In this document: positions 12,796-44,316 of the stretch, piece by piece | Numbering within the stretch: position 1 is the stretch's first letter | Layout of the letters: every line of letters starts with the position of its first letter | Assembly: GCA_018524725.1 (NCBI GenBank) | Contig: JAEUWP010000549.1 | Coordinates: forward strand, 1-44,316 | Direction of reading: 5' to 3' | Length of the DNA stretch: 44,316 nt | Origin: Podaxis mareebaensis | Taxonomy: Eukaryota > Basidiomycota > Agaricomycetes > Agaricales > Agaricaceae | Notes under the pieces: generated by a model | Told to the model about the DNA's origin: nothing | Database searches by the model: none | The model's input: only the letters and a program-made list of their open reading frames with translations | Translations under genes and position numbers: made by a program

Positions 12796-14600
12796 TTACT
12801 CGTTGCAATAGACGTCCTTAGCGGAGACGCCACCCTGGCCTTTGCGGATCTTTGACTGCGCCCACCTGGACAATATTATGAGCAGCCGAAACAGTGAGTG
12901 GTTATGCCTAGCACGCACTTCTTAATCCTGATGGACTCAATAGCGATGAAGCCAGTTGTATCCGTAGGCTCAAAGCCCCCGAGTTCATCCATGGAAGATT
13001 GAGCAGCATCATAAAGGCCCTGAATAGTGCGTCGGTAAGTCGTAGGCGTCTGTTGATGATCACTCACCTCGTCACTTTCACGACCTTCGACGACTGTGTT
13101 ACCCTTGTATAATTTCAGTCTGACGATACCATTCACAGTTCGCTGACTGCTAGGAATAGAACTCGTGATGAACTCGCGCTCAGGCGAGAAGAAGTGACCA
13201 TTGTACAAGATACGGCTCAGAGCAATGGTGGTGAATTGATCCCGTAGAGCACGGACATTGCGATCAAGTGTGAGGCCCTCAAGGTCCATGTGAGCAACGC
13301 GCAAGATGGTGGCTCCCGGGGACTCATAACATCCACGAGACTTGACACCAATAAACCTGTTCTCAACGATGTCAATACGGCCGATACCGTGCTTCCTGGC
13401 GAGGGTATTTAATGCAACGAAAATATCGACGGCGTCAGTATACTCCTTGGCGTCCTTCGGGACGACGAGTTTGACGGGAAGACCACCCTTGAATTCAATG
13501 GCAATGCGCTCGGGCTCGTCTGGGGCGTCCTCAGGAGCAGTGGTCAACTTCCACATGTCGGCGGGAGGGGTAATATTGGGATCTTCGAGGATACCGGCTT
13601 CATAAGATATGTGGAACAAGTTCTCGTCAGTCGACCATGGCTTAGCAGCTGTTTGCTGTACGGGAATGTTCTTTTCTGCAGCGTATTGAAGGAGTGCCTG
13701 TCGGCCGGCGAAACGATTATAGAATTCTTTACAACCAGTGAGACAACTTTCTGGCATATTCACGCTGACATACCAGGAATCCGCCAAGGTGCAATCACCT
13801 TGATATCGGGTTTGAGGCCGTAGAAAGCAAGCTCGAAACGAACTTGGTCATTGCCCTTGCCAGTGCAACCATGGGCAACATAACTAAAAATATCAACATC
13901 AGAAGTTTGTCCTGTGACCAAGATTTTTCGCGATATGCGAGGCGAATAACTGAGACGCGTCTACTCACTCGCAACCCTCCCTCTCAGCAATTTCAATCAT
14001 CCCGCGAGCAATAACAGGGCGGGCGAGGGATGTGCCAAGGAGATAGACATTCTATGGGAAGACAATTACAGTTGCTGTGACAGGAATGCACAAAGAAAAC
14101 CATACCTCGTATATGCAGTTCGTCTGTACGGCGGGATAGATAAGTTCGGTGACAAACTCGCGCTTGAGATCCTAACCGAAAAAAACGTTGCTTAGCTTTG
14201 TCCCCATTTGAAGAACCTGATTGCAAAATGACGCACCGATAGGAAGAACTTTTTCGCCCCGACCTTCAAAGCCTTTGCCTCCGCAGCTTTGAAGTCCTAT
14301 GATAGCACATACAGCGACCAAAAAGGAGCAGGAGCGAACATTGAGATTATGCGCGATCATGATCATTACACAGGGGAACACACCTCTTCTTGACCGACAT
14401 CTGCCATGAATGCATAGACCTCATATCCCTGTTCAATCAACCACGCCAATATACAAGATGTATCTACAAGCAGATCACATTCAGCACAATCGTTTGAAGC
14501 GCGCTACTCCGCGTATTTTAAGAAGGAATCCAGGCCATATGTCGGACTCACCGAGGCCTCCAGAGTAAGCCAAGAGTACGCGGCCGTGGCTTTCAGACAT
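12796..14600 (-). CDS. arg1: Argininosuccinate synthase (9 exons)
   Basis: Joins citrulline and aspartate using ATP to make argininosuccinate, the next-to-last step of arginine synthesis. Exons: 14600-14552, 14463-14384, 14296-14237, 14171-14106, 14051-13969, 13883-13774, 13726-13068, 13019-12919 and 12865-12796; 425 codons, close to the normal 400-420. Key motifs: [12 protein letters not shown] (ATP pyrophosphatase loop), [65 protein letters not shown] and [13 protein letters not shown]. The start is MSESHGRV. An extra 48 bases read through in one long open frame (13020-13067) form an intron: removing them joins ESDE to GLYDA as in the family. Same strand as nup85, with 223 bases between its stop and the nup85 start. 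Confidence 0.95.
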
Positions 14601-26793: not shown

Positions 26794-28521
26794 TCAAGAC
26801 GGGGCACTAGCTAAATTACCACCAGAAGATTCAACCGGAGACGACATAAAGTCCAAGGTATGTGATCTCTGAACGATCTCCAAATCAAACCCGGACATTG
26901 CAAGCCTCCTAATCCTCGTCAGTACCTCAGGTTCCCAAGGTTCCGCCTCGGACAATACCAAACGAAAACGCTCCCGGGTCTCCCTAACGCCATGCAACGC
27001 CTCCAACATTTCAGCCACCATCTCCGCGTCTGGATCGCAATAGTTATCCAGCACAAGGGTTTTGAGGGAGGGCGTAACTTTCGGACCTTCAGCTTTAGTA
27101 GGATCAATCGCTGCCCTTCCACGGTCTCTATCTTCGAAAAGTCCAGCAATGGGCCGTCCAATCATGCTCACAGCCATCGAGACCACCCTGCTCGAACACT
27201 GTCGTAGGTGGAGTTCTGGAAGGTGGGAGACACTGCTGAGAAGGTCCTTCACGATGCTGTAGGAGTAAGGGAAGTGGACGAGTTCAAGGACTTGGAGGGT
27301 GGTTGGTAGATCGGCGAAGAAGGAGATAAATATCAAGTGCAAATCTTCCGAGAACTCTTCGACAAATATACTCTGATGGGATCCAGACCATTTCAGAAGG
27401 CGGAGTTTGGCGAAACGAACATGGCGGAGGAACGCATAGCTCCATTCATCGCTGGTGGTATGCCACTTGAGTGATTCAAGGTGTTCCAGCACAATGGGTT
27501 TGTCGAATGAGGGTAAATTGTCACGGGCGGTGTGGGAGTAAGGTTGGAGACTTTCGAACTCGATGAGGTTCGGGCACTTGGTGAGTAGTTCCACACATTC
27601 CTTGATCGGGAGGTCGCGTAACTTCAGGACGGTGATTGCTGGCCAGTAGGGAATGAGTGGAATACGGAGGTCTTTCAGCGATATTTGGCGTAGACAAGGA
27701 AGATCCGAGAGGTCGACCGAATTGCTGTACTCGGTCCAGGTCGTGATGTGTAACTGTGGCCAATACAGTGTCATCGATTCACACTGCGAAAGCCTTCTTC
27801 CAATGGAGGAGATCCACTCCATTGGAAGGCCTGTCAAAATGAGGCTTCGTATCTTATTCGCATTGTCAACAAAGACAGACGTTTTGATGGGATCCAACGT
27901 GGAGATAGATTTAGCGCGTTGCTCCGGGTCGTCTGCACTATTTAAAAGTAACAGCTGTGCCCTGAGGTCCAATTCGATTGTCATTGGGAGTCCACGAGCG
28001 TTCTCGAAGTATAGGCTGAGAAGCGAAGCATTGTTTTCGGATACAATCTCGTAAACTTCGACCGAGATGGTCGTCCAGAGCTGTGGAGTCGACCAGACGA
28101 CTTGTCGCCAATGATAGGAAACGGCACCCAAGACGAGCTGGAAGTCATCCTCGCTGACATAGTTACCCCGTCGGAGGTCTGGATCGTCAGGGAATTCCGT
28201 TGGGATTGAGCGGCTGGTAAAATCAATAGGCGGGCGGGCAAATTGAAAGATAGTGGATAACACCTCGGGAGGCAAGCGCCTTGTTGAAGCCTGAACACTA
28301 TTTATCTTGCGCAATAGACCAGCCCTATCCTGGTTGAGGCGATAAATAAGGTCATTCAGGCGACGTACTTCGTCCTGAATGAGTGCCACCTCCTCCTGCT
28401 GAGCCCAAACCACCGATCCACTGGGGGAGGGGGCACGACGGGTATCCGCCAGGACTGTGTTGTCAAAACAATGCCCGCAACGAGGGCAAGTAGATGTGGA
28501 AGGAGTCATAGACAGGGTCAT
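26794..28521 (-). CDS. F-box domain protein with leucine-rich-type repeats
   Basis: Intronless frame of about 575 codons; the frame stays open upstream to 28815, but the likely starts are the ATGs at 28521 or 28509 (MTPSTSTCPRCGHCFD, with a CxxC..C pattern). Then comes a coiled coil (about residues 40-75, VRRLNDLIYRLNQDRAGLL), then an F-box (RRLPPEVLSTIFQFARPP), then the agaric-type WRQVVWSTPQLWTTI and a long region of LRR-like segments. F-box proteins recruit targets to SCF ubiquitin ligases; agarics hold hundreds, mostly of unknown targets. Paralogous to the two genes to the right. Divergent from the second copy, with a 379-base spacer. Confidence 0.85.
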   Translation of the reverse strand: MTLSMTPSTSTCPRCGHCFDNTVLADTRRAPSPSGSVVWAQQEEVALIQDEVRRLNDLIYRLNQDRAGLLRKINSVQASTRRLPPEVLSTIFQFARPPIDFTSRSIPTEFPDDPDLRRGNYVSEDDFQLVLGAVSYHWRQVVWSTPQLWTTISVEVYEIVSENNASLLSLYFENARGLPMTIELDLRAQLLLLNSADDPEQRAKSISTLDPIKTSVFVDNANKIRSLILTGLPMEWISSIGRRLSQCESMTLYWPQLHITTWTEYSNSVDLSDLPCLRQISLKDLRIPLIPYWPAITVLKLRDLPIKECVELLTKCPNLIEFESLQPYSHTARDNLPSFDKPIVLEHLESLKWHTTSDEWSYAFLRHVRFAKLRLLKWSGSHQSIFVEEFSEDLHLIFISFFADLPTTLQVLELVHFPYSYSIVKDLLSSVSHLPELHLRQCSSRVVSMAVSMIGRPIAGLFEDRDRGRAAIDPTKAEGPKVTPSLKTLVLDNYCDPDAEMVAEMLEALHGVRETRERFRLVLSEAEPWEPEVLTRIRRLAMSGFDLEIVQRSHTLDFMSSPVESSGGNLASAPS

Positions 28522-28773
28522 AGGTAATGTGATGGATCGGATGGGCGAGGGGTCACAGATGAGGAAAGGTAGCCGGGAAAACGATGTCGGGTCGGTGAGC
28601 GAAAGCACCGAGAGAAACCAAAAGATGAGCTTGTGAAGAGGACGGAGGAGAGCAAAACGGGTTAGACCGTAGAACCGACGGATGTCAAGGTCAGAAAGTC
28701 TAATGAGCGCCCGGAAACACTGACGTACAGGTGTCACGCAGTCACATGGCTCGGCCGTAAGCCACTCGTCCCG

Positions 28774-28797
28774 TCTCCCATCCCATCCCATCCCATT
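28774..28797. repeat. Short tandem TCCCA repeat in the F-box divergent spacer
   Basis: Four TCCCA units in a row (cccatcccatcccatcccat) just upstream of the first F-box gene, inside the interval shared with the second copy. A simple repeat; regulatory use is only a guess. Confidence 0.6.
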
Positions 28798-28900
28798 TAA
28801 GACGTCAATAACCAAAGGTAAGTCAAATAACTTCCTTATACCTTAATGTAATCCATACGCGGTTCCTAACGTCAGTCCCTACCACCATCGAATCCCGAGA

Positions 28901-30407
28901 ATGGAACGTACTGAATCCACTCGTTCAACATCTATATCCCTGCCCGACGAGATCCTCGCCATTATCTTCATCTATGCATGTCCTTCCAACAAGTTCCAAA
29001 GTCGATTCTCCCATGCAAGAGCTCTTGACACTATCGATTATTACCGCTCCCACGAACGGGAGGGGTTGCAATACTGCACCCTCCCCATCGTCCTTAGCTC
29101 TGTCTCTTCCCAGTGGCGTCGCGTGTCCTGGTCGACCCCTCAGCTTTGGAGGACCTTAGCTGTACGCGTCACTAATGGAACTGCGGAGCAGGTGGCATCA
29201 CTACTGTGCCTCTACCTCCAGAACTCAGGGAACCATCCCGTCTCTCTCGAATTGGACTTCAGACAGGAGCCAACGATGAGAGTGGATCGCCCCCGTACAC
29301 CCCGCTCTCACACGGGGGTTTTTACGCCTTATGACACTGACCCTATCAAGAACGTTCTGTTTGAAAATAAGGGATGGAATATTAGCGTCCTGCGCTTGAT
29401 TGCTCCTCCTATCGAGTGGTTTTCGCTCCTTGGCCGCCTGCAACAACTTGAACTTCTTCTGTTTGGGTGGCCCGAGGAAGGTGCTAACAACCCAAGCCCG
29501 ATCGATCCTGCTTTCGGATACTTACCATGTCTCCGTCATCTCACTATTAAGGGAGTTTGGCCGGACATTGAAACTCAACCAGAAGCAATTACCACCCTCG
29601 ATTTGGAATCCGTTCCAATTGATGTCTGCGTGGCGTTCCTCATCCGCTGTCCCTACCTAACGGAATACCACGCCCGCCGCCCACTTCACCCTCCACACCA
29701 GTCACAACATTCTGTTTGGCTGACGACCCCCGATAAGTCTTCCGCGGTTGAGGATATTTTATTGGACAAGCACTGCACATGCCTGGGGTACGGCATTGCT
29801 GAACTATCTTCAACTTCCTACCCTGGAGCGATTAGGCTGGAGTGGCTCGCATCACAGCGAAGCACGACCCGCTTTCCAGCAGTTCTTTGCTCGTCTTCCT
29901 TCATCCCTGAGACATCTCGAGCTCGTAGGGTTCCGTTCCCTCGGTCGCGCCGGACTTCTGGTCGACATATTCCACGGTACTCCGCAGGTCTCGCATCTAA
30001 CGCTTCACGAATGTGACACGACTTTCCTTTCCAGTGTCATCATAGCACTTGCAACTTGCAATACTCATGAAGATGGTGCCGATTTACTGCCCAAGCTACG
30101 ATTTCTAGCTTGTCGTAAGGTTCCTGATGCAGAGGCCTGTCCTGAAATTCTTTGCGAGTTCTTCTGGACTATAGTTGCAGATAGGATGAAGAATAGAGTA
30201 GGGGAAGAGTTTCTCCTCGAGGCTGATCAGCAACTATTTGATTGGCAACCCTATGTACGGAAGAGGCTGAGAGAACTTGCTGGAAGGGGCATCAAGTTGA
30301 GAATTGTGGAGGGGTCGAAAGAGGTTGACTGGTTGACTTGCCCTGGCTCTGCAAATCTAGGTGATGGTGCTTCGTATATTGAAGCGGAACATCCGAGGGT
30401 CCAGTAG
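28901..30407 (+). pseudogene. Second F-box gene, broken by one extra base
   Basis: Starts with a true ATG (MERTESTRSTSISLPDEI) and an F-box (LPDEILAIIFIYACP), without the upstream coiled coil of its neighbours. The frame runs to about 29755, after which the homology continues one frame over to the stop at 30407 (AWGTALLNYLQLPTLERL, LGWSGSHHSEAR). Aligning to the first gene places the shift at the T-run in GATATTTTATTGG (about 29755-29765); with one T fewer the two halves join. It may be a real inactivating insertion or a sequencing error. No intron with GT...AG ends restores the frame there. Confidence 0.8.
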
Positions 30408-33215: not shown

Positions 33216-34866
33216 TCAAAAGAATTCGATGCCAAAGGCAGGCAGAAAGTTATTAAACTTTTGCATATCGAGATTCTTAGTCAATAAATCTGCAGGATTC
33301 TCAGTTCCTTTAATATTATACAAGAGGAATTTTTCATCCTCAAGTAAATTGCAGATATAGTGATACTTAACATCCACATGTTTCGAACATTTTTTGGTAA
33401 CCAGATTTTTGGCCCAAAATACTGAACCTCAGTTATCACCGAATAAGTGTGGTTTTTTAATCCATTCAGGATTAATGCCGATTTCAGTGAGCAGGTTAAC
33501 TGTCCACTCAATTTGTTGACTAGCATCTGACAAAGCCATGTATTTGGCTTCTGTTGATGATAAGGCAACAGTCTTCTGGTGCCGTGATAGCCATGAAATG
33601 GTGGCTCCGGCTATTCTAATAAAGAAGCCAGTGACTGATTTCCTGGTTTCTGGATCTTGTGCCCAATCTGAGTCTGAGAACACATTGATTCCTTCATTTG
33701 TTTGTCCATCATAGACAATGGCATATTTAGATATGCTGTGAAGGTATCGCAAAGTATGTAAGCTGGCTTTATAGTGTTCCCATGACAGATTCATCATTTG
33801 TTGGGATAACTTGATGACTGCAAAGGCAATATCGGGATGTGATCCAATCATCAAGTACATCAAAGATCCAACCAATTGTTGATACTTCTGCCTAAAATTA
33901 GCAGATGCCTCATTCAATGCCATAGTAAAGACGAAGTCTCTTGGCAGTGGAGTAGATTCAGCTTTTTCAACCACATTAAAATGTTCTAAAACCTTATCAA
34001 GGTAAGGCTGTTGATCAATCATGATCAATAGATTATCATGGTCTCATGTGATTCGCATTCCAAGGAATTCGGTAAGTTCACCTAGGAATTGACATTCCCA
34101 TTTATCCATGAATGCTTTTATCTTTCGATGAAGAACTTTCAATCCACGTGGTCCTAAGAAAGCTGCATCATCCACATAAAGTAGTGTGATGATAAGAGAT
34201 TTCTCTCATGTATCATAATAATAGTAGACTCCAGCATCGAGTGATGCTCGTTTAAAGCCTAATTCTTTCATCAAATTGGTTACTTCAAGCCACCATTGTC
34301 AGCCAGCTTGTTTGAGACCATATAAGGTGCATTTAAGACACCATACTTTGGTTTCTTGTCCTTTTTGGACAAAACCTTCTGGTTGTCACATGTATATCTC
34401 TTCTTTAAGATGTCCATAGAGATAAGCAGTCTTCACATCAAGACCAAACATATCCCAATCCTCGAGGGCAGCTATTGCAAATAGCAAACATGTGGTCTCA
34501 TACCAGACAACAGGAGAGAAGAGTTCATCAAAGTTGATGCCTTTGATTTGTGAGAACCCTTGTGTGACTAGTTGAGATCTGAATCTGCCATCAGATTTCA
34601 GAGTAAATACCCATCGATTCCCAATCACTTTTCTTCCTTTTGGAAGGTCAACAAGTTTATAAACTTGTCGTTTCTTTAATGCATCTATTTCTTCAAGACA
34701 AGCTTTATACCACTTATTGTGGATCTCCTTCAGGAGTTTTGCTAAGTCTTTGAATACTTTAGGGGTATATGACACATTATGTAAACCTGTTGGGTTTACT
34801 ATAGAGCTATTGACCTTACATTCATGCCGAAGTACTATAAGCCTGATGTATTGGGTGTACTTAGAT
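33216..34866 (-). pseudogene. copia (Ty1-type) reverse transcriptase and RNase H, 5'-truncated
   Basis: One frame carries the RT core (VYKLVDLPKGRKVIGNRWVF, FGLDVKTAYLYGHLKEEIYM, ITLLYVDDAAFLG with the catalytic YVDD) and RNase H (VFSDSDWAQDPETRKSVTG, ALSSTEAKYMAL), ending ...AFGIEFF. It is interrupted by five stops, all TGA (34386, 34299, 34206, 34044, 33429), at places such as M-stop-QPEGF and DN-stop-GSV where the family has arginine. There is no frameshift. Gag, protease and integrase are absent on this side, replaced by the Ty3 LTR at 34867. Confidence 0.9.
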
Positions 34867-35050
34867 GTGTGGTATAAGGTCAGCTGTCCTAACGACAGCT
34901 GATGACAAGATTTATAAGGAACACATTTTGATGGATTGAGTAATCCATCAAGGTCGAAGACAAACAATAAAACGAATGATTAATTATTAATGAGTGACTT
35001 AAATAATCCTGAACAATTGAAGATACGACTGTAAGGGCCCAGCCCTTACA
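34867..35050 (-). mobile_element. Ty3 element 3' LTR
   Basis: On the minus strand, the purine tract ATGGGGGGTG (35060-35051) is followed by TGTAAGGGCTGGGCCCTTACA, a good polypurine tract/LTR start. The proposed far end ...CTTATACCACA at 34867 gives TGT...ACA ends and about 184 bases, short but possible; the true end could differ by tens of bases. A TATA-like TTATAAAT lies at about 34911. It contains three perfect hairpins (34881-34901, 34928-34951, 35030-35050). Confidence 0.55.
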
Positions 35051-35654
35051 CACCCCCCATTGAGACCGTAGAATATGGTCAAGGACATTGAAACACAAGT
35101 GGTGCAGCTACTTGTGGTAGTGAGTGATAGACAGGGCACATACAGTGCCCAGCCAGCAAGGTAGATTAGTACGAGGTGATGGTTCACCTCAATGAAGGTG
35201 TAAGCTGGAGTCGACTCATTCACGATGGTGATGAGCATGAGCATGAGCGGGAAGAGGCGATCGAAGAAGACTTGCCAACAACGTCTTGGGATGAGGGGGT
35301 GGAGGCGTTGGCCTCAGCCAAGAATGCAATGGGAGGCAGATCAGACACAAGGGCAGAGGCATTGGCCTTGGTCATGGTTGCATCTGATGACAGATGGTCG
35401 GTGACGATGGGGGTGATTACAGAGGTGTTGGCCTCTGTCATTTGGGTGTCCGCGTCGAGGGCCGCTTCCTCAGTGATTGTAGGTGCTGGCCCGGTGAGGG
35501 TTAGTGCGAGGGGGTGGGCTACCCATAATTGAGAGGGGGGCGGTTCCAGCAGGCATTGAGGGTACTTGTGGTTCTGGAGGAGCTGGAAGAATGGTGAGGC
35601 CCCTGCTGGCAACCATCCTCGGGGAACAAAGTGCTCCCCCTTGGTCTGTCGTGC

Positions 35655-35679
35655 ATTCTTGTACTCAAAGTACAAGAAT
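35655..35679. repeat. Hairpin, 11 bp perfect stem, 3-base loop
   Basis: ATTCTTGTACT (35655-35665), caa, AGTACAAGAAT (35669-35679). Lies inside the extra ORF. Confidence 0.95.
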
Positions 35680-36226
35680 CGGTTAATGTCATCGTGAGTG
35701 GGATGTCTCCATCCATCCCACTCAGGAATTGCTGGGGGTTTGTGATATCAGTCGAGATATTCAACCCGACGATTGTCATGTTTGTCATATAAATTGTGGT
35801 GCAGCTGGTCACCACGGTAGGTGTGGTTTAGCCACCACAACCCAAAAAGGTAAGAGTGGTCTACCCATGAAATGGGTATACCATTGCGAATGAGAACATG
35901 AGCCACATCATTGAGGCTCAAGTTGTGGGACATGTATGAAGTCATTTCTAGGGGCTGTATAGAATATATGGGCCCATTTTGAGGAGCGAAGGCATGTTCT
36001 GGAGGAATGTGACTGTTGTATGACGTGATGAGTTCGTGGTAGGGGTGCAGGGTCGCTACCAGTACTGCGAATAGTTGCATGAACCTCTGGGCTGTGCTCT
36101 TATCATCAGGGCTTAAAGCGTGGCCCAGGCCATATCCAAATACGCAACAGCAGTGCACAAGCTTCCGCTGTTCGAATGCAATGCCATTGAAGGCATTGTG
36201 CATGTCAGGGTTTCCATGTATTAGGA

Positions 36227-36251
36227 GATATTGACCTAAAAGGTCAATATC
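36227..36251. repeat. Hairpin, 11 bp perfect stem, 3-base loop
   Basis: GATATTGACCT (36227-36237), aaa, AGGTCAATATC (36241-36251). Lies inside the extra ORF. Confidence 0.95.
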
Positions 36252-36778
36252 GAATAGTTGCAGTCCGGAGGGCATCGGTAATCCTTTGCCCTCATTTTGC
36301 TTGAGGATATTGCATGTGCCGTGGTCTTGTACGGCACACACAATGGGTTCCAACCTGGTGATGTACTCCTCCTGCATCCCAGGTGCTAAGAACTTGGGGT
36401 CGTAACCCTCAAGGTTCAGTATGAATTCCATAGCATCATCATGATGCTCTGGAAGAGTTGAGGAGGCGATGTGATACAGTTGTCGAAGCAAGAAATATGC
36501 TTTGAACCTGCTGTGGATGTTGATGTGGCGGTTGTTCATGAACTGCCATAATCGAATTACTTGTCTCGGGGTCGTAGGTAGACCCTGGCCTGTGATGTGG
36601 TGGACAGTGCCCTTCTTGTTGCTGTGGATAAACTCCCTACCTTGGAGTTCACTGTTTGCAGCAATTCGGGCATTTGTACCAGCAAACACAGTGTTTATTC
36701 ACTGGCAGTAGTAGACGTCATGCGACAACATTCCACGCATGAAGTTGTCACATTCTCAAATGCCGGGTTCGGTTCCCC

Positions 36779-36803
36779 AGAGTCCCCAAAAGTTGGGGAC
36801 TCT
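36779..36803. repeat. Hairpin, 11 bp perfect stem, 3-base loop
   Basis: AGAGTCCCCAA (36779-36789), aag, TTGGGGACTCT (36793-36803). Lies inside the extra ORF. Confidence 0.95.
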
Positions 36804-37135
36804 ACCTCCGCGGCTGATGCGGTCTGATACATTGGTGCAGTCGTCATTATTTGATGATGACACCTTTGATTTGTTCTTGTTTTTCTTATGATGATTCTTT
36901 GTGGAATCATCATCATTGCTTGAGTATTCCAGGCCTGATAGTCGTTCGTCTGGGTCGTCTGGACTGTACTGGACAAACTCGTGATGTAGTCGGATTTCAG
37001 GCTCTGGGAGGAGAGTTCCTGGTGGGCATACCAGGATTGGTTGGCCAAAGGAGAGTCCTTCAAATAGGGACTCCGATGGAATGATGCCACTTGAGGTCTG
37101 TTTTATTGACCTCGATGGGGTTGTTTGAGGAGGTT

Positions 37136-37166
37136 CTGTCATGGGGACATCGATGTCCCCAGACAG
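37136..37166. repeat. 20-base perfect palindrome extended by 5 bp flanking arms
   Basis: TGGGGACATCGATGTCCCCA at 37142-37161 is its own reverse complement. Outside one unpaired A (37141), CTGTC at 37136-37140 pairs with GACAG at 37162-37166. Confidence 0.95.
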
Positions 37167-38275
37167 TACCTCCTTGATGTATGGTAAGGTGATGTTGGCT
37201 GGCAGTGGTGGTGGCTGATGTGAGGTTGAGATGGTTGGTGGAGGCGAAGGTTGACGACGTTGGTGAGGTAATGGTTTTACCTCATTACTGGTGTGTGGTG
37301 TCAGGGTCGTCGGAGTCTGTGGGGTGCTATGCACCCCCTGTTGAGATGATGTTGTCAATTGAGATGTTGCATGTCGTTTTGCAGGCCATTCTTCTTTGTG
37401 GTCTGACTTTTCATTTAGTTGTCATTGCAGGTTCGAGACCTGCCTCTGTAGTAAACTGTTTTGTCCTTCGAGCATGACAAAACAATCTTGCAGACTATGG
37501 AGCTTCATGAGAAGCTCCTCGATAATTGCATTACAAGCACCATGTCGGGAGCTGGTGCTTACTTCTGATATCAGGTCTATAGGTAGACCTGCTTCGTTGA
37601 GTCGGTTCATCAGCTCTTGGACATACTGGTTGTCCTCGAGCTCTATATCTACAGCTCTTTGCTTTCCTCGGGCTTTTGAGGAAAGGGCGGGCTGTGCTGA
37701 CTTGGTTGATTTCTGTTTGCCCTTGTCCTTAGAGGACAAGGGTGCTGGGGAGTTCTTTGTTCTACTCCTTCCTCAAGTCGAGGTGACTGAGGATGATTGA
37801 GATGGAGGAGCGTTGTTCCTCCCTATGTCAGTTGCCGATGATGATGTTGGGGCCAGTGTTGTTGGTCGTGGTGTTGTGGCTGGCCGATCTTGGGTCGGCG
37901 GTGACAGCTGCAGTTGCAGTGGAAGTGGTGGCATTTGTTGGATTGGTGCAGTGGTGGGTTGTTGTTATGGTGGGTATGGTGCCAATGGAGGAGGGTAGGG
38001 TCCATACAGTTGAGCGAAACTGTACATGTGTGGAGGAGGCGGGTAGAATGCAGGGTATGGGTAACCCTGCATGAAAGGTTGGGGTGGTGGAGGCATCGCA
38101 TGTAAATGTGATGGATCCATTTGATTTGGACCTTGTGGTATCGAGCCCACAAGGTTAGATAGTAGCGCTTGCTGGGCAGCGAGTTGCTGCCCATTGTGGT
38201 GAGGAACTGGGATCAGGTCAGGCGATACATCCATTGCCCTCCCCCCTTCGAGGCCCATTGGAGGGCCTCCAGGAT

Positions 38276-38303
38276 GTGCAGGGTGATTCGCATCACCCTG
38301 CAC
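38276..38303. repeat. Hairpin, 12 bp perfect stem, 4-base loop
   Basis: GTGCAGGGTGAT (38276-38287), tcgc, ATCACCCTGCAC (38292-38303). Near the start of the extra ORF. Confidence 0.95.
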
Positions 38304-38400
38304 TGATGTGTATTGTTGATTTTGGGTGTGTTGGGGTTGTTGCGCGTCCATGGTGGTGGTGTTGAAGTGAGGATGAATTAAAGTTATTTGTCCCATCTTT

Positions 38401-38457
38401 GTGTTCCCAAACATTGGGAACACGATCCTCAGGGTCAAGTGTCCAAATTTGGACACT
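38401..38457. repeat. Two adjacent hairpins: 10 bp stem, then a 20-base perfect palindrome
   Basis: GTGTTCCCAA, aca, TTGGGAACAC at 38401-38423; then AGTGTCCAAA/TTTGGACACT at 38438-38457 with no loop. They lie between the end of the chromodomain frame and the first Met of the extra ORF. A third hairpin, CCATGGAT...ATCCATGG, follows at 38468-38495 across the pol TGA. Confidence 0.95.
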
Positions 38458-38477
38458 GTCAATTTTTCCATGGATAG

Positions 38478-38783
38478 TCATTGACTGATCCATGGTAATT
38501 GTCGAATTGAGTTAGCACCTTTCAGCTCTAGATACCAATCTAGAGCTGCTAGGTCTTTACAATGGCAATATGGCTCCCATGTCATATCGCCTAGACTCCA
38601 GCATACCTGGAATTCTGCCTGGCCATCATTTGTGAAATGATGACCGATGATTTCGTCGATGAACCATTCATGTTCATTGTCTATGCCAAAGTCGTAGGGT
38701 TCCGGTTTATTTTGGCTAGGGAATAGTGTATCGTCTGATGCATTATAGGGCTGAAGCAATGATATGTGGAACGTCGGGTGTAT
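38478..38783 (-). pseudogene. Ty3 integrase C-terminus with chromodomain
   Basis: After IHPTFHISLLQPYN come EWFIDEIIGHHF, EFQVCWSLGDMTWEPYCHC and DLAALDWYLELKGA: the chromodomain pattern (aromatic...I...F.V.W...D.TWEP). Chromodomains on integrase mark chromoviruses and direct insertion to modified histones. A TGA at 38784 precedes it and a TGA at 38478 ends it; reading continues in the same frame into the extra ORF. Whether the 38478 TGA is the natural pol stop or another decayed CGA cannot be told here. Confidence 0.85.
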
Positions 38784-40199
38784 TCAACATTCCTGCAGGG
38801 CTGGTGGTAGCTCGAGATGGTAGTTAGACGTCTCAGGTTTGGCTTCCAGGACCTTAAAGGGTCTGATGAACTTTGGGCAGAGCTTTCGAGCTCTGCCTTT
38901 CGGCAAGTTCAGGTTTTTGGTGGAGAGGAATACCAGATCCCTGACTTTAATGTCGGGTTTGGGCCCTCTCTTTTTGTTCACCTGGTGGGTTTGAAAAACC
39001 TGCGCTTCTATGATGGTGTCATGAGCAGATGCCAAGTTTATCAGGGTGGCTTCGGCAAATAGTCTAACACCCTTAGGGGGTGTTAGGTCGCCCCGTATTT
39101 CTTGGATCATACTGGGCATGTATCCACTGTTCAATTCGAACAGTGCGTACCCAGTAGTGGCTGATATACTCGAGTTTATAGCAAACTTGGTCATGGGTAC
39201 CTTGTCTACCCAGTTTTTCTGGTCATGGCTGACCGTTGCTCGGAATATCTGTCCGATATTCTGGTTCATGTGTTCAGTCTGTCTGTCTGTTTGTGGGTGG
39301 AATGATGTGGACATTAGGAGCTTGGCTCCTAAAATTTTATGGAGTTCTATCCACCAAACGGAGGTGAACTTTGAATCTCGATCGCTTACAATTGAACTAG
39401 GGAGGCCATGTAGCCTCACGATCTCTCATAGGTAGATCCAAGATAACTCGGATGCTTTCATCTGCATATGTACTGGGATCAGGTGTACCATACTCATCAT
39501 TCTACAAATGACGACCCAGAGGTAGTCAAAGCCTTTGGATTCAGGGAATGGACCAACGAAGTCCATTCCAATGGAATGCCAAGGTTTGGTTGGGACTGGT
39601 AGTGAGTGCAGTGTCCCGGAAGGTTTCGTATTTGAGACCTTCGAGCATTGACATATTTTGCATGTTCTGCAGAACATGTGTGCATCTTTGGCTAATTTTG
39701 GCCACCAGTACCACCTTCAGAGGTACTCTGCTGTCTGTTGATCACTGAAGTGACCAATGATCTCGTGAGCTTTATTCAAAAGCTCTGTAATTAAGGATCG
39801 ATTGTTGGGAACACATACTACCTCCTGTCCTTGGGGGGTAGTTCTTTGAATAATACTGTCATCATTGATGGTAAAACCACTGTATTTCTCAGGTGCTTCA
39901 AGCACCGCTGAAAATACGGGGTCAGATGCATATCCCAATGTGATTGTATTCGTCACATTGCTTGGGAGCTCCATTGGAGCTTTGGTGGTGACGTTACCCA
40001 TTAATGCATCTCCTAGTGTTGGGGACTCAGCGAGTCGTCCTTGTGGCTCCTGTTGAGCAACCTGTCTCTGGGTTGCTTCTTGAAGCTCACGAGCTTTGAT
40101 CTCTCATTCTTCCTGCCGTTCACGTAGGCAGTTGCTTCGCTGCAATGGTGGCTCAACCATTGCCTTGACTCTGTTGAGGAGATGCTCGATTTCCTCGGT
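38784..40199 (-). pseudogene. Ty3 integrase
   Basis: Zinc-binding HHCC part: HEIIGHFSDQQTAEYL and MFCRTCKICQ. Catalytic DDE core: GMDFVGPFP (first Asp), SDRDSKFTSVWW (second Asp) and FHPQTDRQTEH (Glu). The extension RKLCPKFIRPFKVLE is the GPF/Y-type segment. The catalytic residues are intact. In-frame TGAs lie at 40104, 39717, 39426 and 38784, at positions such as YL-stop-RWYWWP where arginine is usual. TEHMNQNIG stands where relatives have an arginine (CGN to CAN change). Confidence 0.88.
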
Positions 40200-40856
40200 T
40201 CATTGTAAGGGTAGATCCTCGCAGTGAGGATCAATTTTGTAGTCGACTTGGACATAGTCTCCAGGGGAATGTTCCTCTCCTGGGGTATCGCTTTTGAAGT
40301 AGCGAGACAAGCAGTCCACTACCTTGTTTCGTTCCCCTTTGACATAAGTGATGTCAAAGTTGAAGTGCGACAGGTAGTCCATCCATCATCGTTGTCGACT
40401 GGACAATCGTGTTTGGGTTTTGAAAAACTCAAGCGCTTTGTGATCCGTGATTACATGGATCTGATAACCAACAAGTTTATCTTCCCACTTCATTAGCGCT
40501 TCCAGAATCGCTAGTGTCTTGAGTTCGTGCATGGCATAGTTCTGCTGTGCTGGGGTGAACTTCTTGGACATGAACCCTGCTGGGCGGCAGTCTGCCCAGG
40601 TGGGTCCTTGTCCATACATAGCTCCGACACCTGTCTTAGAGGCGTCACAGATGATCCATATAGGTTCCCCAGTTCTGGGGTCTATCGGTTTGACGATGGG
40701 GGTTTTCTCACAGATCCTCTTCACCATGTCGAAACATCATTGGTGAAGGGGCCTCCAATGGAACAGGGTCCCATTCTGAGTGATTGCGAGCAGTGGCCTG
40801 GTGTATGCAGATACATCTGGCAAAAAGTTTGCCAGGTAGTTGACGAGTCCAACGAA
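40200..40856 (-). pseudogene. Ty3 RNase H
   Basis: Contains FVGLVNYLANFLPDVSAYT (RT connection), PIWIICDASKTGVGAMYGQ (first catalytic Asp), NYAMHELKTLAILEAL (Glu), ITDHKALEFFKTQ (Asp) and YVKGERNKVVDCLSR. TGAs lie at 40857, 40737, 40386 and 40200. NVQ-stop-FVGL and RQR-stop-WMDYL are places where arginine is normal. Confidence 0.88.
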
Positions 40857-41007
40857 TCATTGGACATTGGTATAGTTTCTGGGAGTGCGCCACTCCCTGA
40901 TGTGGGTCAATTTGTCTTTGTCTGGGTGTATCCCTTGGTCATCAATAATATGACCAAGGCAGTCAATGCGATCTGCATACAGATTGCATTTGGATTGTTT
41001 GACGTAT

Positions 41008-41041
41008 AGCTTGTGTTTGCGCAGTTGCTCAAACACAAGCT
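41008..41041. repeat. Hairpin, 12 bp perfect stem, 10-base loop
   Basis: AGCTTGTGTTTG (41008-41019), cgcagttgct, CAAACACAAGCT (41030-41041). Inside the RT coding region. Confidence 0.95.
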
Positions 41042-41094
41042 GTAGATGATCTTCGTGCTCATCTATCGAGTCAGAGAATATGAAGATGTCATCA

Positions 41095-41118
41095 AGGTAT
41101 ATGTGTACACATATACCT
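41095..41118. repeat. 24-base perfect palindrome over the RT catalytic motif
   Basis: AGGTATATGTGT (41095-41106) is followed directly by ACACATATACCT (41107-41118). On the coding strand it covers the codons just before and into IYLDD, the RT active site. Confidence 0.95.
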
Positions 41119-42302
41119 ATGACATCGTGAAATATAGCGGTCATTAACCGCTGAAAGGTTGCAGGGGCATTACAATCCCCCTGCTGCATTATGTTGCTAA
41201 CATACATGCCAGTGATTGTGGCAAATCCCATTTTGTCTATGTCTTCTAGACGTATTTGGACTTGTTCATAGGCATCAGTGAGATCGATTTTGGATTGATA
41301 TTGTGCTTGGGCGATGTCTTCTCGAATGACGTCTTGGTCTGGCAAGGGCGTGGCATCCTTGACAGTGTTTTCGTTTCATTGTTGTGCATCTATGACGGTT
41401 CGTAGTCAACCATCTTTCTTTGGAATGCACAGTAACAGCACCACTTGGGAGACATGTTGTGGCTCCCACCATCTTGCATTCACATAACAGTTGAGTTTCT
41501 GGTGAAACTCCCTGTGTAGAGATTGAGGGCATCGAGGAGTGAAGTAATTGTACTTCTTGTTCTCATCGATGAGGTTTATTTTGTGATTTACTTCACGAAA
41601 TGGTGGTAATTCATCGGGAGGACCTTGCATGATGTCCTCGAGTTCACTGAACCACTGTTGGTGCAGAGTTGGTATGTTTTTCTTGGAATACTGACCTTGT
41701 CACTCAGGGTGGCAATTCCTCTTTTCAGTGTTGATACGAGCATTTTGTATTCATGTTTCTGGGTTGTCTTCCACTGGAAGATGAGTGATGATCATACTGC
41801 GGAGTTGATCTCATACTATTTTATCAGGGTAATGTACCCTGGTAAACTCCTGGGTTTCGACTACATCGTCGAGGTTGGGTTGTGTAAACCCAGTCAAAGT
41901 TGGTAGTTTGTCCCCAGGACGATGCATTTCCCATATGCCGCAGACCATGGCATTCCATTCTGCGGGCATGTGGGGGTTGTAATACCACTCGAACATTGGG
42001 TTCTGAGCTGGTTTGTCTATCAAACGAGACTTGTATCTCGTTTTTTGTGGTCCATGAGGGGCATTTTGTCCCTCTTGATTTGGTGAAGGAGGCACTTTCT
42101 CTTTCAGTTTGTGTCTCTTGGAGGAGACCTTGTGTTCTTCTTGATCTATGTCCCCCCTTCAAGAGTTCATGGAACTCTTGACCTTTTCTAGGAGGTGACA
42201 GCTATCGTGGGGTAATGTTTCCCCTCTAGAACTTTGTTCGTCATCTCGAACTTCTTCTATGGATGTTTGATGAATATTATCTCGTCGGACATCCTCCACA
42301 AG

Positions 42303-43109
42303 TCAACTTGACTTGTTTTTGTCAGTTGCATGGTGGCGATGCAGGCGGGTATCTGATTCGCCAGTGAAGTTCACCACTGCTATGGTTTCGTTTCCGATTC
42401 TGACTTCATTCTTGATGAAGTCGAGGATGACATTATTTGTATGCATGAATGGTGTACCAATTATCATGTCATAGCAATCGAAGTTCGCTACATCTACATA
42501 TGTACGGGTACGTATGTTTCCAATAGCGACATTTACTGTCACTCCGTACTTGACAGTGGATCAACTGCCCACTGTCCCCAGCTGCAGTGTGTGAGGGTCT
42601 AATAGTTCATTGACCCTGATGCCAGCCACTTGTGCAAATGTGGGGGTTATGCTGGTAGTCGTACTACCGGAGTCCCACAGTGTCCAAGTGTCAATGCCAT
42701 TGATGCTGACGAGAGTGGCGAGACATTGTTTCTCACTGAGGGATGCTTGGGGCTGAAGGATCTTATCCTTCTCTTTATGGAGGGTGACATGACATACCCT
42801 CACTTCGTGGTCTGGTTTCTCACTGGGTTCGACAGTGAGAGCATCGACGACATCGAAGTCGTTGCAGTCTTTGCCATTGATGTCTTCTGCGTCACCAATC
42901 ATGGTGGTGAAATCATATTTGTCATCAACATCGGATCTGTAGTCTGATTTGATGACTTCGACTTGTACTAGTTCATCTCTGTTTGACAAACTAGGTTCTG
43001 GTTCTTCTTGGACCTCAATGTTGTCATCTGAGGTCGAGTCCTGTTCGATTTCTTCAACTTCTTGTTGAAGGACTTCTTCATCATTCACTGGAACAACTGT
43101 GTGCACGGC
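42303..43109 (-). pseudogene. Ty3 aspartic protease region
   Basis: After an acidic linker (residues rich in Glu, Asp and Ser from 43100 to 42820) comes LATLVSINGIDTWTLWDSG with the catalytic Asp-Ser-Gly, then FDCYDMIIGTPFMHTNNVIL, a typical retropepsin C-terminal half (IIG.PF). TGAs lie at 42561 and 42303. The segment between 42300 and 41640 links protease and RT, carries TGAs at 42159, 41811, 41751 and 41700, and has no known domain. Confidence 0.85.
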
Positions 43110-44316
43110 TCATACATAGCTGTGTCATTTCCCCTTCTCTGGGCATTCTTGTGCCCAGTGGCCATGTTTTCCACATTTGTAACAAGGCCCTTTCTCTGTG
43201 GCCTTGTTCCCTTGGTTCTGCTTAACAGGTACCTTGCTCTGTACCTGTGGTTTGAATTGAGCCTTGGGTTTATGTTGTCGAGGTGGAGGTCTTGACAGTC
43301 ACTTTGGAGGAAAGGCATTTGAGGATCACCTTAGTTCATGAGCAGGGATGCGATCCCATCCTATGGATACACAATGAGGGACCCATGCAGTCCTCGTTCT
43401 TGGTTCTGCTGCGGCAGGCTTCTTTGGGAAGCCTGCTGATGGTTCATGTGATCGAGAGGGTTTCAAAACCCTTTCGAAGAAGGCACTGCTTTGCATCCGA
43501 TTCTCATAATTGGCTGCGTGCACTACAAAGTCTTCAAGTTGATTCATTTCAGGTGACAGTCCTCTGTTGAACATGAGGAAGTGTCTCATAGTTTGCAGTA
43601 GACCTTCTAAGAAGGTCTCGATGAGAGAATAATCATCGGGATGGACTGCCATGTCTTGCGAGTAGCCCAAGATGGCATCGTAATAGTGTTGAATCCCTTC
43701 CTTGGGATTGTATTTGACTCCCTTGAGGCTTTCATGAGCCTCATGCATCAATGTCAGTCTGATAAATCTGTCATAGAGTGCCGTTATGACACTCTTGAAA
43801 GTCCAATCGTATTTACTACAATCTATGCTAAGTACATGGCAAACGAACATCTCTTTCACCTCTCCAACGAGATAGTATTGGAGGGTCAGGATATGTAAAC
43901 GGTCTGTGGTGGGGTTCTGTCCCCCCAGTCCCTTCATGGCGAAGTCGGCACAGAGACTTGTCACAAATGACAATAAGTCTCTGAATTGGTGACTCCCTCC
44001 ATACAGCTCCAAGCTCTTTTCTGTGGGGAGCTTGTTCAATGAAGGTTTATAACCTTCAGGGTATTCAATTGGCTGTGCGAGGTATTGATCAATCATTCTA
44101 TGTAAATGATCATACATAAGATTATTGTAACTCTGGATGGATTGTACAATCCCCGGAGTTATGGACTCGTCGCATGCTTCTCTAACTAGGGAGTAATGGT
44201 GAGTCCCTCGATTTGGTGTTGGGAGTCGTGAGGTGTTATGCACCTCTCGTTCCTCCTCTTCTTCATCCTCTTCTTCTTCCTCTCTTACCGGAGGGAGGTT
44301 TCATAGAGGGTTTAGG
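43110..44316 (-). pseudogene. Ty3 gag with CCHC zinc knuckle, cut by the window edge
   Basis: A retrotransposon-gag-like helical region (about 44200-43430, including YDWTFKSVITALYDRFIRL and EAHESLKGVKYNPKEGIQHYY) is followed by basic residues and the zinc knuckle CYKCGKHGHWAQEC (about 43190-43145), which binds RNA. TGAs lie at 43326, 43299, 43125 and 43110. Upstream, at 44240-44290, an acidic run (EEEEEDEEEEERE) precedes HNTSRLPTPNRG. The gag start, 5' leader and 5' LTR are outside the window. Confidence 0.88.

What the first reader, a model, noticed from the sequence alone, without database searches (positions are those of the whole stretch)
34881..44316. Ty3 element saturated with short perfect hairpins
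Nearly every 60-120 bases two short arms are exact reverse complements with a 0-12 base loop. Stems of 10-12 bp: 34928-34951, 35655-35679, 35695-35724, 36227-36251, 36779-36803, 36888-36913, 37142-37161, 37720-37742, 38276-38303, 38401-38423, 38438-38457, 38523-38548, 40933-40959, 41008-41041, 41095-41118, 42159-42181. About 30 more have 8-9 bp stems, for example 37457-37484, 37499-37518, 38048-38072, 38876-38897, 39064-39086, 39545-39569, 39661-39678, 40337-40359, 42298-42316, 43181-43208, 43414-43436, 43600-43618. With equal base frequencies, stems of 10 bp or more with such loops are expected about 0.1 times in 9.4 kb, against 16 seen. They run through gag, pol, the extra ORF and LTR alike, so they are not one control element. 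Possible causes are repeated template switching during reverse transcription or repair, selection for folded RNA, or a link to small-RNA silencing. The host genes in this window did not strike me this way by eye.
Basis: partly seen in the sequence, partly recalled or inferred. Interest (0 to 1): 0.88.

Follow-up and report, generated by a model that had tools for sequence, protein, structure and literature searches.

The report
Retrotransposon packed with perfect hairpins
A family of jumping elements in what is probably a fungal genome carries a short, perfect fold-back sequence about every hundred bases, and comparison of its copies suggests that evolution keeps these fold-backs, for a reason that is not yet known.

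Summary
All 28 quoted hairpins are exact; the stretch holds 51 perfect stems of 8 bp or more (16 of 10 or more) against 1.4 (0.07) in dinucleotide shuffles. Codon-preserving shuffles and host ORFs do not show it. All 18 further copies aligned of this Ty3 (chromovirus-like) family have it, and so does a sister family 65% identical in pol DNA; eight other Ty3-type loci of the genome are at chance level. Much copy-to-copy divergence is CpG decay, which mimics compensatory change, so CpG columns were masked. After masking, internal-branch substitutions hit stems about half as often as loops or flanks; real differences between copies keep up to twice as many hairpins as the same differences shifted in codon phase; two thirds or more of stems sit elsewhere in the sister family at equal density. 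So hairpins seem kept by selection as a diffuse property. Against ordinary sense-RNA selection: G-U breaks are tolerated no better than A-C breaks (0.31, 0.32 of background), and loops show no RNA-type motifs. Template switching as main cause is also disfavoured. Best reading: selection for local Watson-Crick fold-back in cDNA or both strands. Benefit unknown; the sister-family replicate is inconclusive.

The parts
34780..44316 (-). Hairpin-saturated Ty3 (chromovirus-like) element, 3' 9.5 kb; cut by the contig end
   Evidence: 12 of 19 fetched loci start matching at 34772-34780; Pfam RT, RNase H and Tf2-type SH3 on its ORFs; stem counts
34780..35050 (-). 3' LTR (sense TGTAAGGG...GGTTTACA), preceded by a GGGGGG polypurine tract
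   Evidence: Read from sequence and copy borders; same plan in the sister family, L035. No second LTR seen, so inferred
35030..35050 (-). Hairpin at LTR start, TGTAAGGGC / GCCCTTACA, also in sister family
34781..34799 (-). Hairpin at LTR end, GTAAACC / GGTTTAC; sister family GTAAAGC / GCTTTAC (one C-G to G-C double change)
34880..34902 (-). LTR hairpin, 9 bp stem in the window (up to 12 bp in other copies)
34928..34951 (-). hairpin, 10 bp stem, loop 4 (LTR)
35655..35679 (-). hairpin, 11 bp stem, loop 3 (extra ORF)
35695..35724 (-). hairpin, 11 bp stem, loop 8 (extra ORF)
36227..36251 (-). hairpin, 11 bp stem, loop 3 (extra ORF)
36779..36803 (-). hairpin, 11 bp stem, loop 3
36888..36913 (-). 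hairpin, 10 bp stem, loop 6
37142..37161 (-). hairpin, 10 bp stem, loop 0
37720..37742 (-). hairpin, 10 bp stem, loop 3
38276..38303 (-). hairpin, 12 bp stem, loop 4
38401..38423 (-). hairpin, 10 bp stem, loop 3
38438..38457 (-). hairpin, 10 bp stem, loop 0
38523..38548 (-). hairpin, 11 bp stem, loop 4 (chromodomain-like end of pol)
40933..40959 (-). hairpin, 10 bp stem, loop 7 (RT)
41008..41041 (-). hairpin, 12 bp stem, loop 10 (RT)
41095..41118 (-). hairpin, 12 bp stem, loop 0, at the YLDD part of RT; no stem there in L032
42159..42181 (-). hairpin, 10 bp stem, loop 3
35748..36698 (-). Extra ORF 3' of pol, no Pfam family; 44% identical to P0001 (437 aa)
38478..39425 (-). Integrase C-terminal part with Tf2-type SH3 and chromodomain-like end
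   Evidence: SH3; chromodomain only in sister copy L032 (E 1e-4, below Pfam cut-off)
40386..41375 (-). Reverse transcriptase and RNase H pieces (broken by stops)
42561..44300 (-). Gag (one CCHC zinc knuckle) and protease pieces
   Evidence: Pfam gag and protease matches below their cut-offs

Best explanation
The element's nucleic acid is under selection to fold back on itself locally, all along: a short hairpin (stem about 6-12 bp, loop about 3-10) roughly every 100 bases, each replaceable, with density and not position kept over long times. SHOWN: excess over all shuffles; presence in two families and not in eight other Ty3-type loci; in the window's family, fewer substitutions in stems than in loops and flanks on internal branches and retention of hairpins beyond a local, codon-phase null; turnover between the families. 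INFERRED: what is selected is strict Watson-Crick complementarity, so the fold matters in DNA (single-stranded cDNA) or in both RNA strands (sense and antisense), because G-U is worth no more than A-C. GUESSED benefit: local fold-back keeps sense and antisense strands, or cDNA copies, from annealing to each other, and so from making long double strands that host silencing would detect; protection of single-stranded cDNA is the other candidate.
For: Excess; L032 has 41 stems of 8 or more in 7.0 kb, and its four ORFs 40 against a codon-shuffle sum of 1.8. Distribution: 19 aligned rows have 35-62 stems of 8 or more; L031 and L032 35 and 41; eight other Ty3-type loci 3 in 27.5 kb. Folding z: L032 -2.67, W -2.48, MS2 -2.87, one 7 kb host stretch -0.08, one other Ty3-type locus (L001) +0.16. 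Constraint: internal changes per non-CpG column stem 0.143, loop 0.293, flanks 0.325, rest 0.226; six neutral simulations show no such bias by ascertainment. Retention: W to L015 44 of 51 stems kept, phase-shifted differences 22.0 (maximum 28 over 52 shifts); 14 of 14 ordered pairs keep more than the shifted mean, 13 of 14 more than every shift. Turnover: 6 of 19 W pol stems have a stem at the same place in L032 (shift control 0.82, maximum 3); the other way 4 of 18 (0.53, maximum 2). Wobble: break acceptance GU 62/199.1 = 0.31, AC 73/229.5 = 0.32, other 40/164.3 = 0.24; pair just outside stems GU 13 (expected 12.9) in L032 and 12 (15.7) in W. Third codon positions build the stems: register 3-3/1-2 in 10 of 69.
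Against: In the sister family (11 copies, shallow) the constraint is not shown: stems of 8 or more give stem 0.074, loop 0.096, flanks 0.104, rest 0.084; stems of 7 or more give stem 0.087, above rest 0.071; break counts are tiny. Terminal-branch acceptance is also below 1 (0.51-0.68), so part of the deficit may not be selection on active copies. Stem length against GC is significant in one of three sequences (L032 p 0.009, W 0.087, L015 0.33); loop-closing C-G exceeds G-C in the four W-family rows tested, hardly in L032 (31 to 26) and is reversed in L031 (17 to 25). Sense and antisense z differ little but by about 1 for L032 (-2.93, -1.97, standard errors 0.33-0.34), not for W, so the molecule is not identified. 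In one copy, L023, G-U beside stems is above chance (19, expected 13.2). No RNA, small-RNA or cDNA data; no other species.
Confidence: 0.52

Rival explanations
1. Ordinary selection on folding of the sense genomic RNA (genome-scale ordered RNA structure as in some plus-strand RNA viruses), for packaging, stability or hiding from small-RNA silencing.
For: Folding z like MS2; stems avoided by substitutions; loops A-rich in L032; L032 sense z stronger than antisense (-2.93, -1.97), though not.
Against: G-U breaks accepted no more than A-C; no consistent G-U excess at stem ends or in single-mismatch stems; no repeated or RNA-stable loops and no consistent strand preference, whereas rRNA shows GNRA and UNCG loops 36- and 66-fold over their complements (PMC8794818, section 8); only loops up to about 10-12 are enriched.
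Confidence: 0.25
2. Snap-back template switching by the element's reverse transcriptase writes and corrects inverted copies, so hairpins are a mutational by-product.
For: Perfect stems, sharp ends, no G-U preference; both-arm changes on a branch keep pairing in 10 of 11 internal and 7 of 10 terminal cases, slid controls 1-4 of 4-9. Mechanism described for DNA replication (PMC8794818, outline and one section seen).
Against: Arm changes not concentrated in one arm: 10 of 19 clusters with two informative changes, 2 of 17 with three, 1 of 11 with four. No clear excess divergence at codon positions 1 and 2 in family-specific stems; codons with an amino-acid difference 0.373 (W-only) and 0.297 (L032-only) against 0.346 outside stems. 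Symmetric correction would leave stem sites changing at background rate as double changes, of the order of 300; 10 seen. That is my rough estimate, not a fitted model.
Confidence: 0.13
3. Stems merely mutate less (paired bases shielded from error or deamination), so old hairpins persist without benefit.
For: Lower change rate in stems, also on terminal branches.
Against: Does not explain how hairpins arose, why density is equal in a sister family with mostly different positions, or why eight other Ty3-type loci lack them; the terminal reduction (0.67 of loops, 0.79 of flanks) is smaller than the internal one (0.49, 0.44).
Confidence: 0.07
4. Ancestral hairpins decaying neutrally, with apparent covariation from CpG decay.
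For: CpG decay is a large part of the divergence (2,034 of 9,627 columns masked) and gives false compensation.
Against: After masking, real differences keep more stems than random or phase-shifted ones, and simulated decay gives a wider spread among copies (26-87 from about 110) than seen (35-62; some rows partial).
Confidence: 0.03

Closest known systems
[quoted passage not shown]
   Same: Structure spread over coding and non-coding parts, folding energy well below shuffles (MS2 used here as a structured RNA genome, my choice of control)
   Different: An LTR retrotransposon; perfect stems of 7 bp or more at 9-10 per kb against 2.0 per kb in MS2; G-U not preferred; almost only local loops
Chromovirus (Ty3) LTR retrotransposons
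   Same: Protease, RT, RNase H, H2C2 integrase, SH3, chromodomain-like end, LTR-like TG...CA, polypurine tract, CCHC gag
   Different: Hairpin saturation; long extra ORF after pol; probably more than 11 kb; eight other Ty3-type loci of the same genome lack hairpins
Template-switch hairpins (Monttinen and Loytynoja 2022, PMC8794818; outline and section 8 seen)
   Same: Perfect stems and Watson-Crick restoration
   Different: Whole-element density; no one-arm clustering; mostly avoided changes rather than double changes
Dispersed packaging-signal hairpins of RNA phages (recalled)
   Same: Many small hairpins along a genome
   Different: No shared loop motif; tri- and tetraloops nearly all different; loops change no less than background

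Membership tests
Ty3 / chromovirus LTR retrotransposon | RT, RNase H, integrase in Ty3 order | tested here: met
   Pfam RVT_1, RT_RNaseH, Integrase_H2C2, rve, SH3_Tf2-1 in order in sister copy L032; RT, RNase H and SH3 pieces in the window
Ty3 / chromovirus LTR retrotransposon | Chromodomain at the integrase C-terminus | tested here: inconclusive
   L032 Chromo E 1e-4, 22.6 bits, below the 25.1 cut-off; none in the window piece
Ty3 / chromovirus LTR retrotransposon | Two LTRs | tested here: inconclusive
   3' LTR-like end in both families; no LTR-like direct repeat in 19 fetched loci, which stop short of the 5' end, nor in one copy followed 1.6 kb further
Genome-scale ordered RNA structure | Folding energy below shuffles throughout | tested here: met
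Genome-scale ordered RNA structure | RNA-type pairing: G-U accepted as a pair (my criterion, from RNA structure in general) | tested here: not met
Genome-scale ordered RNA structure | RNA shown folded by biophysical probing | not testable with these tools
Template-switch mutation | Clustered changes confined to one arm | tested here: not met
Template-switch mutation | Perfect reverse-complement arms with short loop | tested here: met
Dispersed packaging signals | Shared loop motif | tested here: not met
   (tri- and tetraloops of three sequences; change rates of loops)
Small-RNA precursor | Small RNAs cut from the stems | not testable with these tools
   stems of 12 bp or less in the window

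The most novel reading that the evidence does not exclude
A retrotransposon clade whose whole genome is shaped by selection for Watson-Crick-only, strand-symmetric local hairpins, that is, structure selected in its single-stranded cDNA or in both strands at once, not in the sense RNA: a whole-genome DNA (or two-strand) fold-back code laid over genes and LTR.
Probability: 0.37. Interest if true: 0.88.

Novelty: new variant of a known kind. Interest (0 to 1): 0.78.

Why it matters
Whole-genome structure is known and debated in RNA viruses; here it appears, with short perfect stems several times denser than in MS2, in a retrotransposon with dozens of copies of many ages in one genome, beside other Ty3-type elements that lack it. 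That makes the cause of genome-wide folding testable: same host, same kind of element, with and without. If the indifference to G-U holds up, the selected molecule would be cDNA or both strands, which points to steps (annealing, silencing, cDNA protection) other than sense-RNA folding.

Tried and rejected
Covariation counted on raw alignments (161 of 173 double changes keep pairing) was rejected as evidence: CG/CG arms decaying to TG and CA pair by chance, and any two transitions keep pairing. One-mismatch counts on sliding windows were replaced by unique counts because windows overlap. Loop first-mismatch asymmetry gave no consistent strand signal. Folding z without G-U: L032 -2.93 to -2.88, MS2 -2.25 to -1.81, but the standard errors are 0.26-0.38, so I give it no weight. 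Uniform random placement of differences was replaced by codon-phase shifts as a fairer null. A replicate in the sister family was too shallow and does not by itself support the constraint. Relatives in viral contigs: none confirmed. No Rfam match in the window at gathering threshold. Literature: searches; titles and abstract starts of the listed papers only (15 of 70, 8 of 15, 8 of 16, 10 of 16), except PMC8794818 (outline and section 8) and PMC3950689 (passages). None of the listed titles or abstract starts describes a hairpin-saturated LTR retrotransposon. Rows dropped: L027 (1.8 kb of element only; 19 stems of 8 or more in its 9.9 kb) and L009-L011 (the window itself or part of a copy already used) were left out of the 19-row alignment.


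Full report
OBSERVATION. All 28 quoted hairpins are exact. Perfect stems with loops of 0-12 number 51 (8 bp or more), 16 (10 or more) and 3 (12) in 34881-44316, against 6, 3 and 1 in the remaining 34,880 bases of the window. Dinucleotide shuffles of the element give 1.43 and 0.07; two other stretches of the window of the same length hold 1 and 1 stems of 8 or more, 1 and 0 of 10 or more.

WHAT IT LIES IN. The window is the whole contig C345 of a 37 Mb assembly. On the minus strand lies a decayed Ty3 element with gag (one CCHC knuckle), protease, RT, RNase H, an integrase part with Tf2-type SH3 (gag and protease below Pfam cut-offs), an extra ORF with a single protein relative, and a 3' LTR-like end at 34780-35050. 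It runs off the contig; the one copy followed further shows 1.3 kb more with 8 stems of 7 or more and open coding stretches, and no 5' LTR. To its left is a copia-type fragment, by my reading of its translation.

COPIES AND RELATIVES. A 1.2 kb piece finds at least 40 matches in the genome (40 of 48 candidates scored). Of the copies fetched, 19 rows including the window were aligned over 9,627 columns; every one has 35-62 stems of 8 or more and 9-18 of 10 or more (some rows are partial). Loops peak at 3-5 and 7 and fall away beyond 10-12. A sister family, 65% identical in pol DNA, has 35 and 41 stems in 7.5 and 7.0 kb in its first two copies. L032, a copy without CpG decay (CpG o/e 0.97), has 8, 11, 16 and 5 stems in four ORFs against codon-shuffle means 0.36, 0.56, 0.54 and 0.34. 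An RT search lists 131 matches: 46 at 64-100% identity, then a gap, and 85 at 29-36%. Eight of those 85, loci L001-L008 (the best RT family hits, not a random sample), hold 3 stems in 27.5 kb, which is chance level. RNA folding energy z averages -2.67 (L032) and -2.48 (window element), like MS2 (-2.87); one host stretch -0.08; L001 +0.16.

A TRAP. Copies differ to a large part at CG sites decayed to TG or CA. Arms that pair CG with CG then show TG opposite CA, which looks compensatory. I therefore masked 2,034 of 9,627 columns; non-CpG divergence still reaches 12%.

HAIRPINS ARE KEPT IN THE WINDOW'S FAMILY. Between the window copy and L015, 708 non-CpG differences leave 44 of 51 stems and 54 stems in all; the same differences shifted by multiples of three bases leave 22.0 (maximum 28) and 24.5 (maximum 30) over 52 shifts. 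Of 14 ordered pairs tested, all keep more than the shifted mean and 13 more than every shift; the exception is the nearly identical pair W/L012, and the closer pairs show smaller gains (for example 46 against 36.4 for W/L014). On internal branches, changes per column are 0.143 in stems, 0.293 in loops, 0.325 in 10-base flanks and 0.226 elsewhere; on terminal branches 0.159, 0.238, 0.201 and 0.194. Six neutral simulations with implanted stems show no bias from choosing stems after the fact. I infer that the constraint is stronger in lineages that went on transposing. Loops are free, which argues against a loop-reading protein.

THEY TURN OVER. Of 19 pol stems (8 or more) in the window copy, 6 have a stem of 6 or more at the same place in L032 (shift control 0.82, maximum 3); the other way it is 4 of 18 (0.53, maximum 2). 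Shared ones include double changes: in pol a T-A pair where L032 has A-T, and in the LTR-end hairpin C-G to G-C. Columns of family-specific stems diverge much like other columns at each codon position (first 0.23 against 0.215, second 0.12-0.13 against 0.136, third 0.52-0.57 against 0.557); amino-acid differences are 0.373 and 0.297 of codons against 0.346. Stems avoid the register in which third positions pair with third positions (10 of 69). So stems seem built by ordinary, mostly third-position substitutions within the limits of the protein code.

NOT ORDINARY RNA STRUCTURE. Relative to background, breaks to G-U are accepted at 0.31 (62, expected 199.1), to A-C at 0.32 (73, 229.5), to others at 0.24 (40, 164.3) on internal branches; on terminal branches 0.61, 0.68 and 0.51. 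The first non-pair outside stems is G-U at about chance in seven of eight sequences; L023 has 19 where 13.2 are expected. Single mismatches inside stems, not explained by CpG, are A-C 10 and G-U 8 in L032, 13 and 2 in the window copy, where composition alone favours A-C about 1.8 to 1. Tri- and tetraloops are nearly all different, with no excess of RNA-stable motifs; first loop mismatches show no consistent strand preference. In rRNA, by contrast, 78.5% of two-step compensations involve G-U, and GNRA and UNCG loops exceed their complements 36- and 66-fold (PMC8794818, section 8). A fold test without G-U pointed the same way, but within its errors.

NOT MAINLY TEMPLATE SWITCHING. Informative non-CpG changes are spread over both arms: one-arm only in 10 of 19 clusters with two changes, 2 of 17 with three, 1 of 11 with four. 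Both-arm changes keep pairing in 10 of 11 internal cases, more than slid controls (1-4 of 4-9), which fits compensation or occasional switching; but by my rough estimate symmetric correction would give of the order of 300.

WEAK POINTS. The sister-family replicate (11 copies) is shallow and does not show the constraint by column rates: stems of 8 or more give stem 0.074, loop 0.096, flanks 0.104, rest 0.084, and stems of 7 or more give stem 0.087 against rest 0.071; its internal breaks (stems of 8 or more: G-U 1 of 15.6 expected, A-C 1 of 8.4, other 1 of 14.4) are few but depend on an uncertain root. Stability signs are mixed. L032 folds better in sense than antisense (-2.93, -1.97) but hardly (-2.67, -2.51). 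Polarity rests on parsimony and midpoint rooting. No expression data, no second species, host unnamed. Setting these against the calls once more, I lowered the best explanation from 0.55 to 0.52 and the novel case from 0.40 to 0.37, and raised sense-RNA selection from 0.22 to 0.25.

VERDICT. A genuine and striking property of one Ty3 clade: a dense field of replaceable, perfect local hairpins over genes and LTR, kept by selection as far as the window's family shows. What molecule must fold and what it gains are open; the indifference to G-U points to cDNA or to both RNA strands. The nearest known phenomenon is genome-scale ordered RNA structure of RNA viruses, from which this differs in kind of element, stem perfection, density, locality and indifference to G-U.

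Noticed in passing
33281-34779: Copia-type RT/RNase H coding fragment (read from translation) directly left of the element, which seems inserted into it.
   Followed up: no
35220-36698: Extra ORF of about 400 aa after pol, no Pfam family, one relative (P0001, 437 aa) found in the protein search.
   Followed up: partly
window element; L031, L032, L036-L044: CpG decay of copies (CpG o/e 0.09 to 1.01 in the sister family, 0.52 in the window element), suggesting CpG methylation of this family and a record of copy age.
   Followed up: partly
L035 162-409 and window 34780-35050: Both LTR ends are hairpins in both families, with a double change preserving one pair.
   Followed up: partly
26797-30013: Two neighbouring ORFs with weak F-box-like matches (below cut-off) on opposite strands; for the second the protein search found only itself.
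   Followed up: partly
12879-13787: Argininosuccinate synthase C-terminal exon (host gene).
   Followed up: no
1-34880: This part holds 6 stems of 8 bp or more, 3 of them 10 or more and one of 12; not examined.
   Followed up: no
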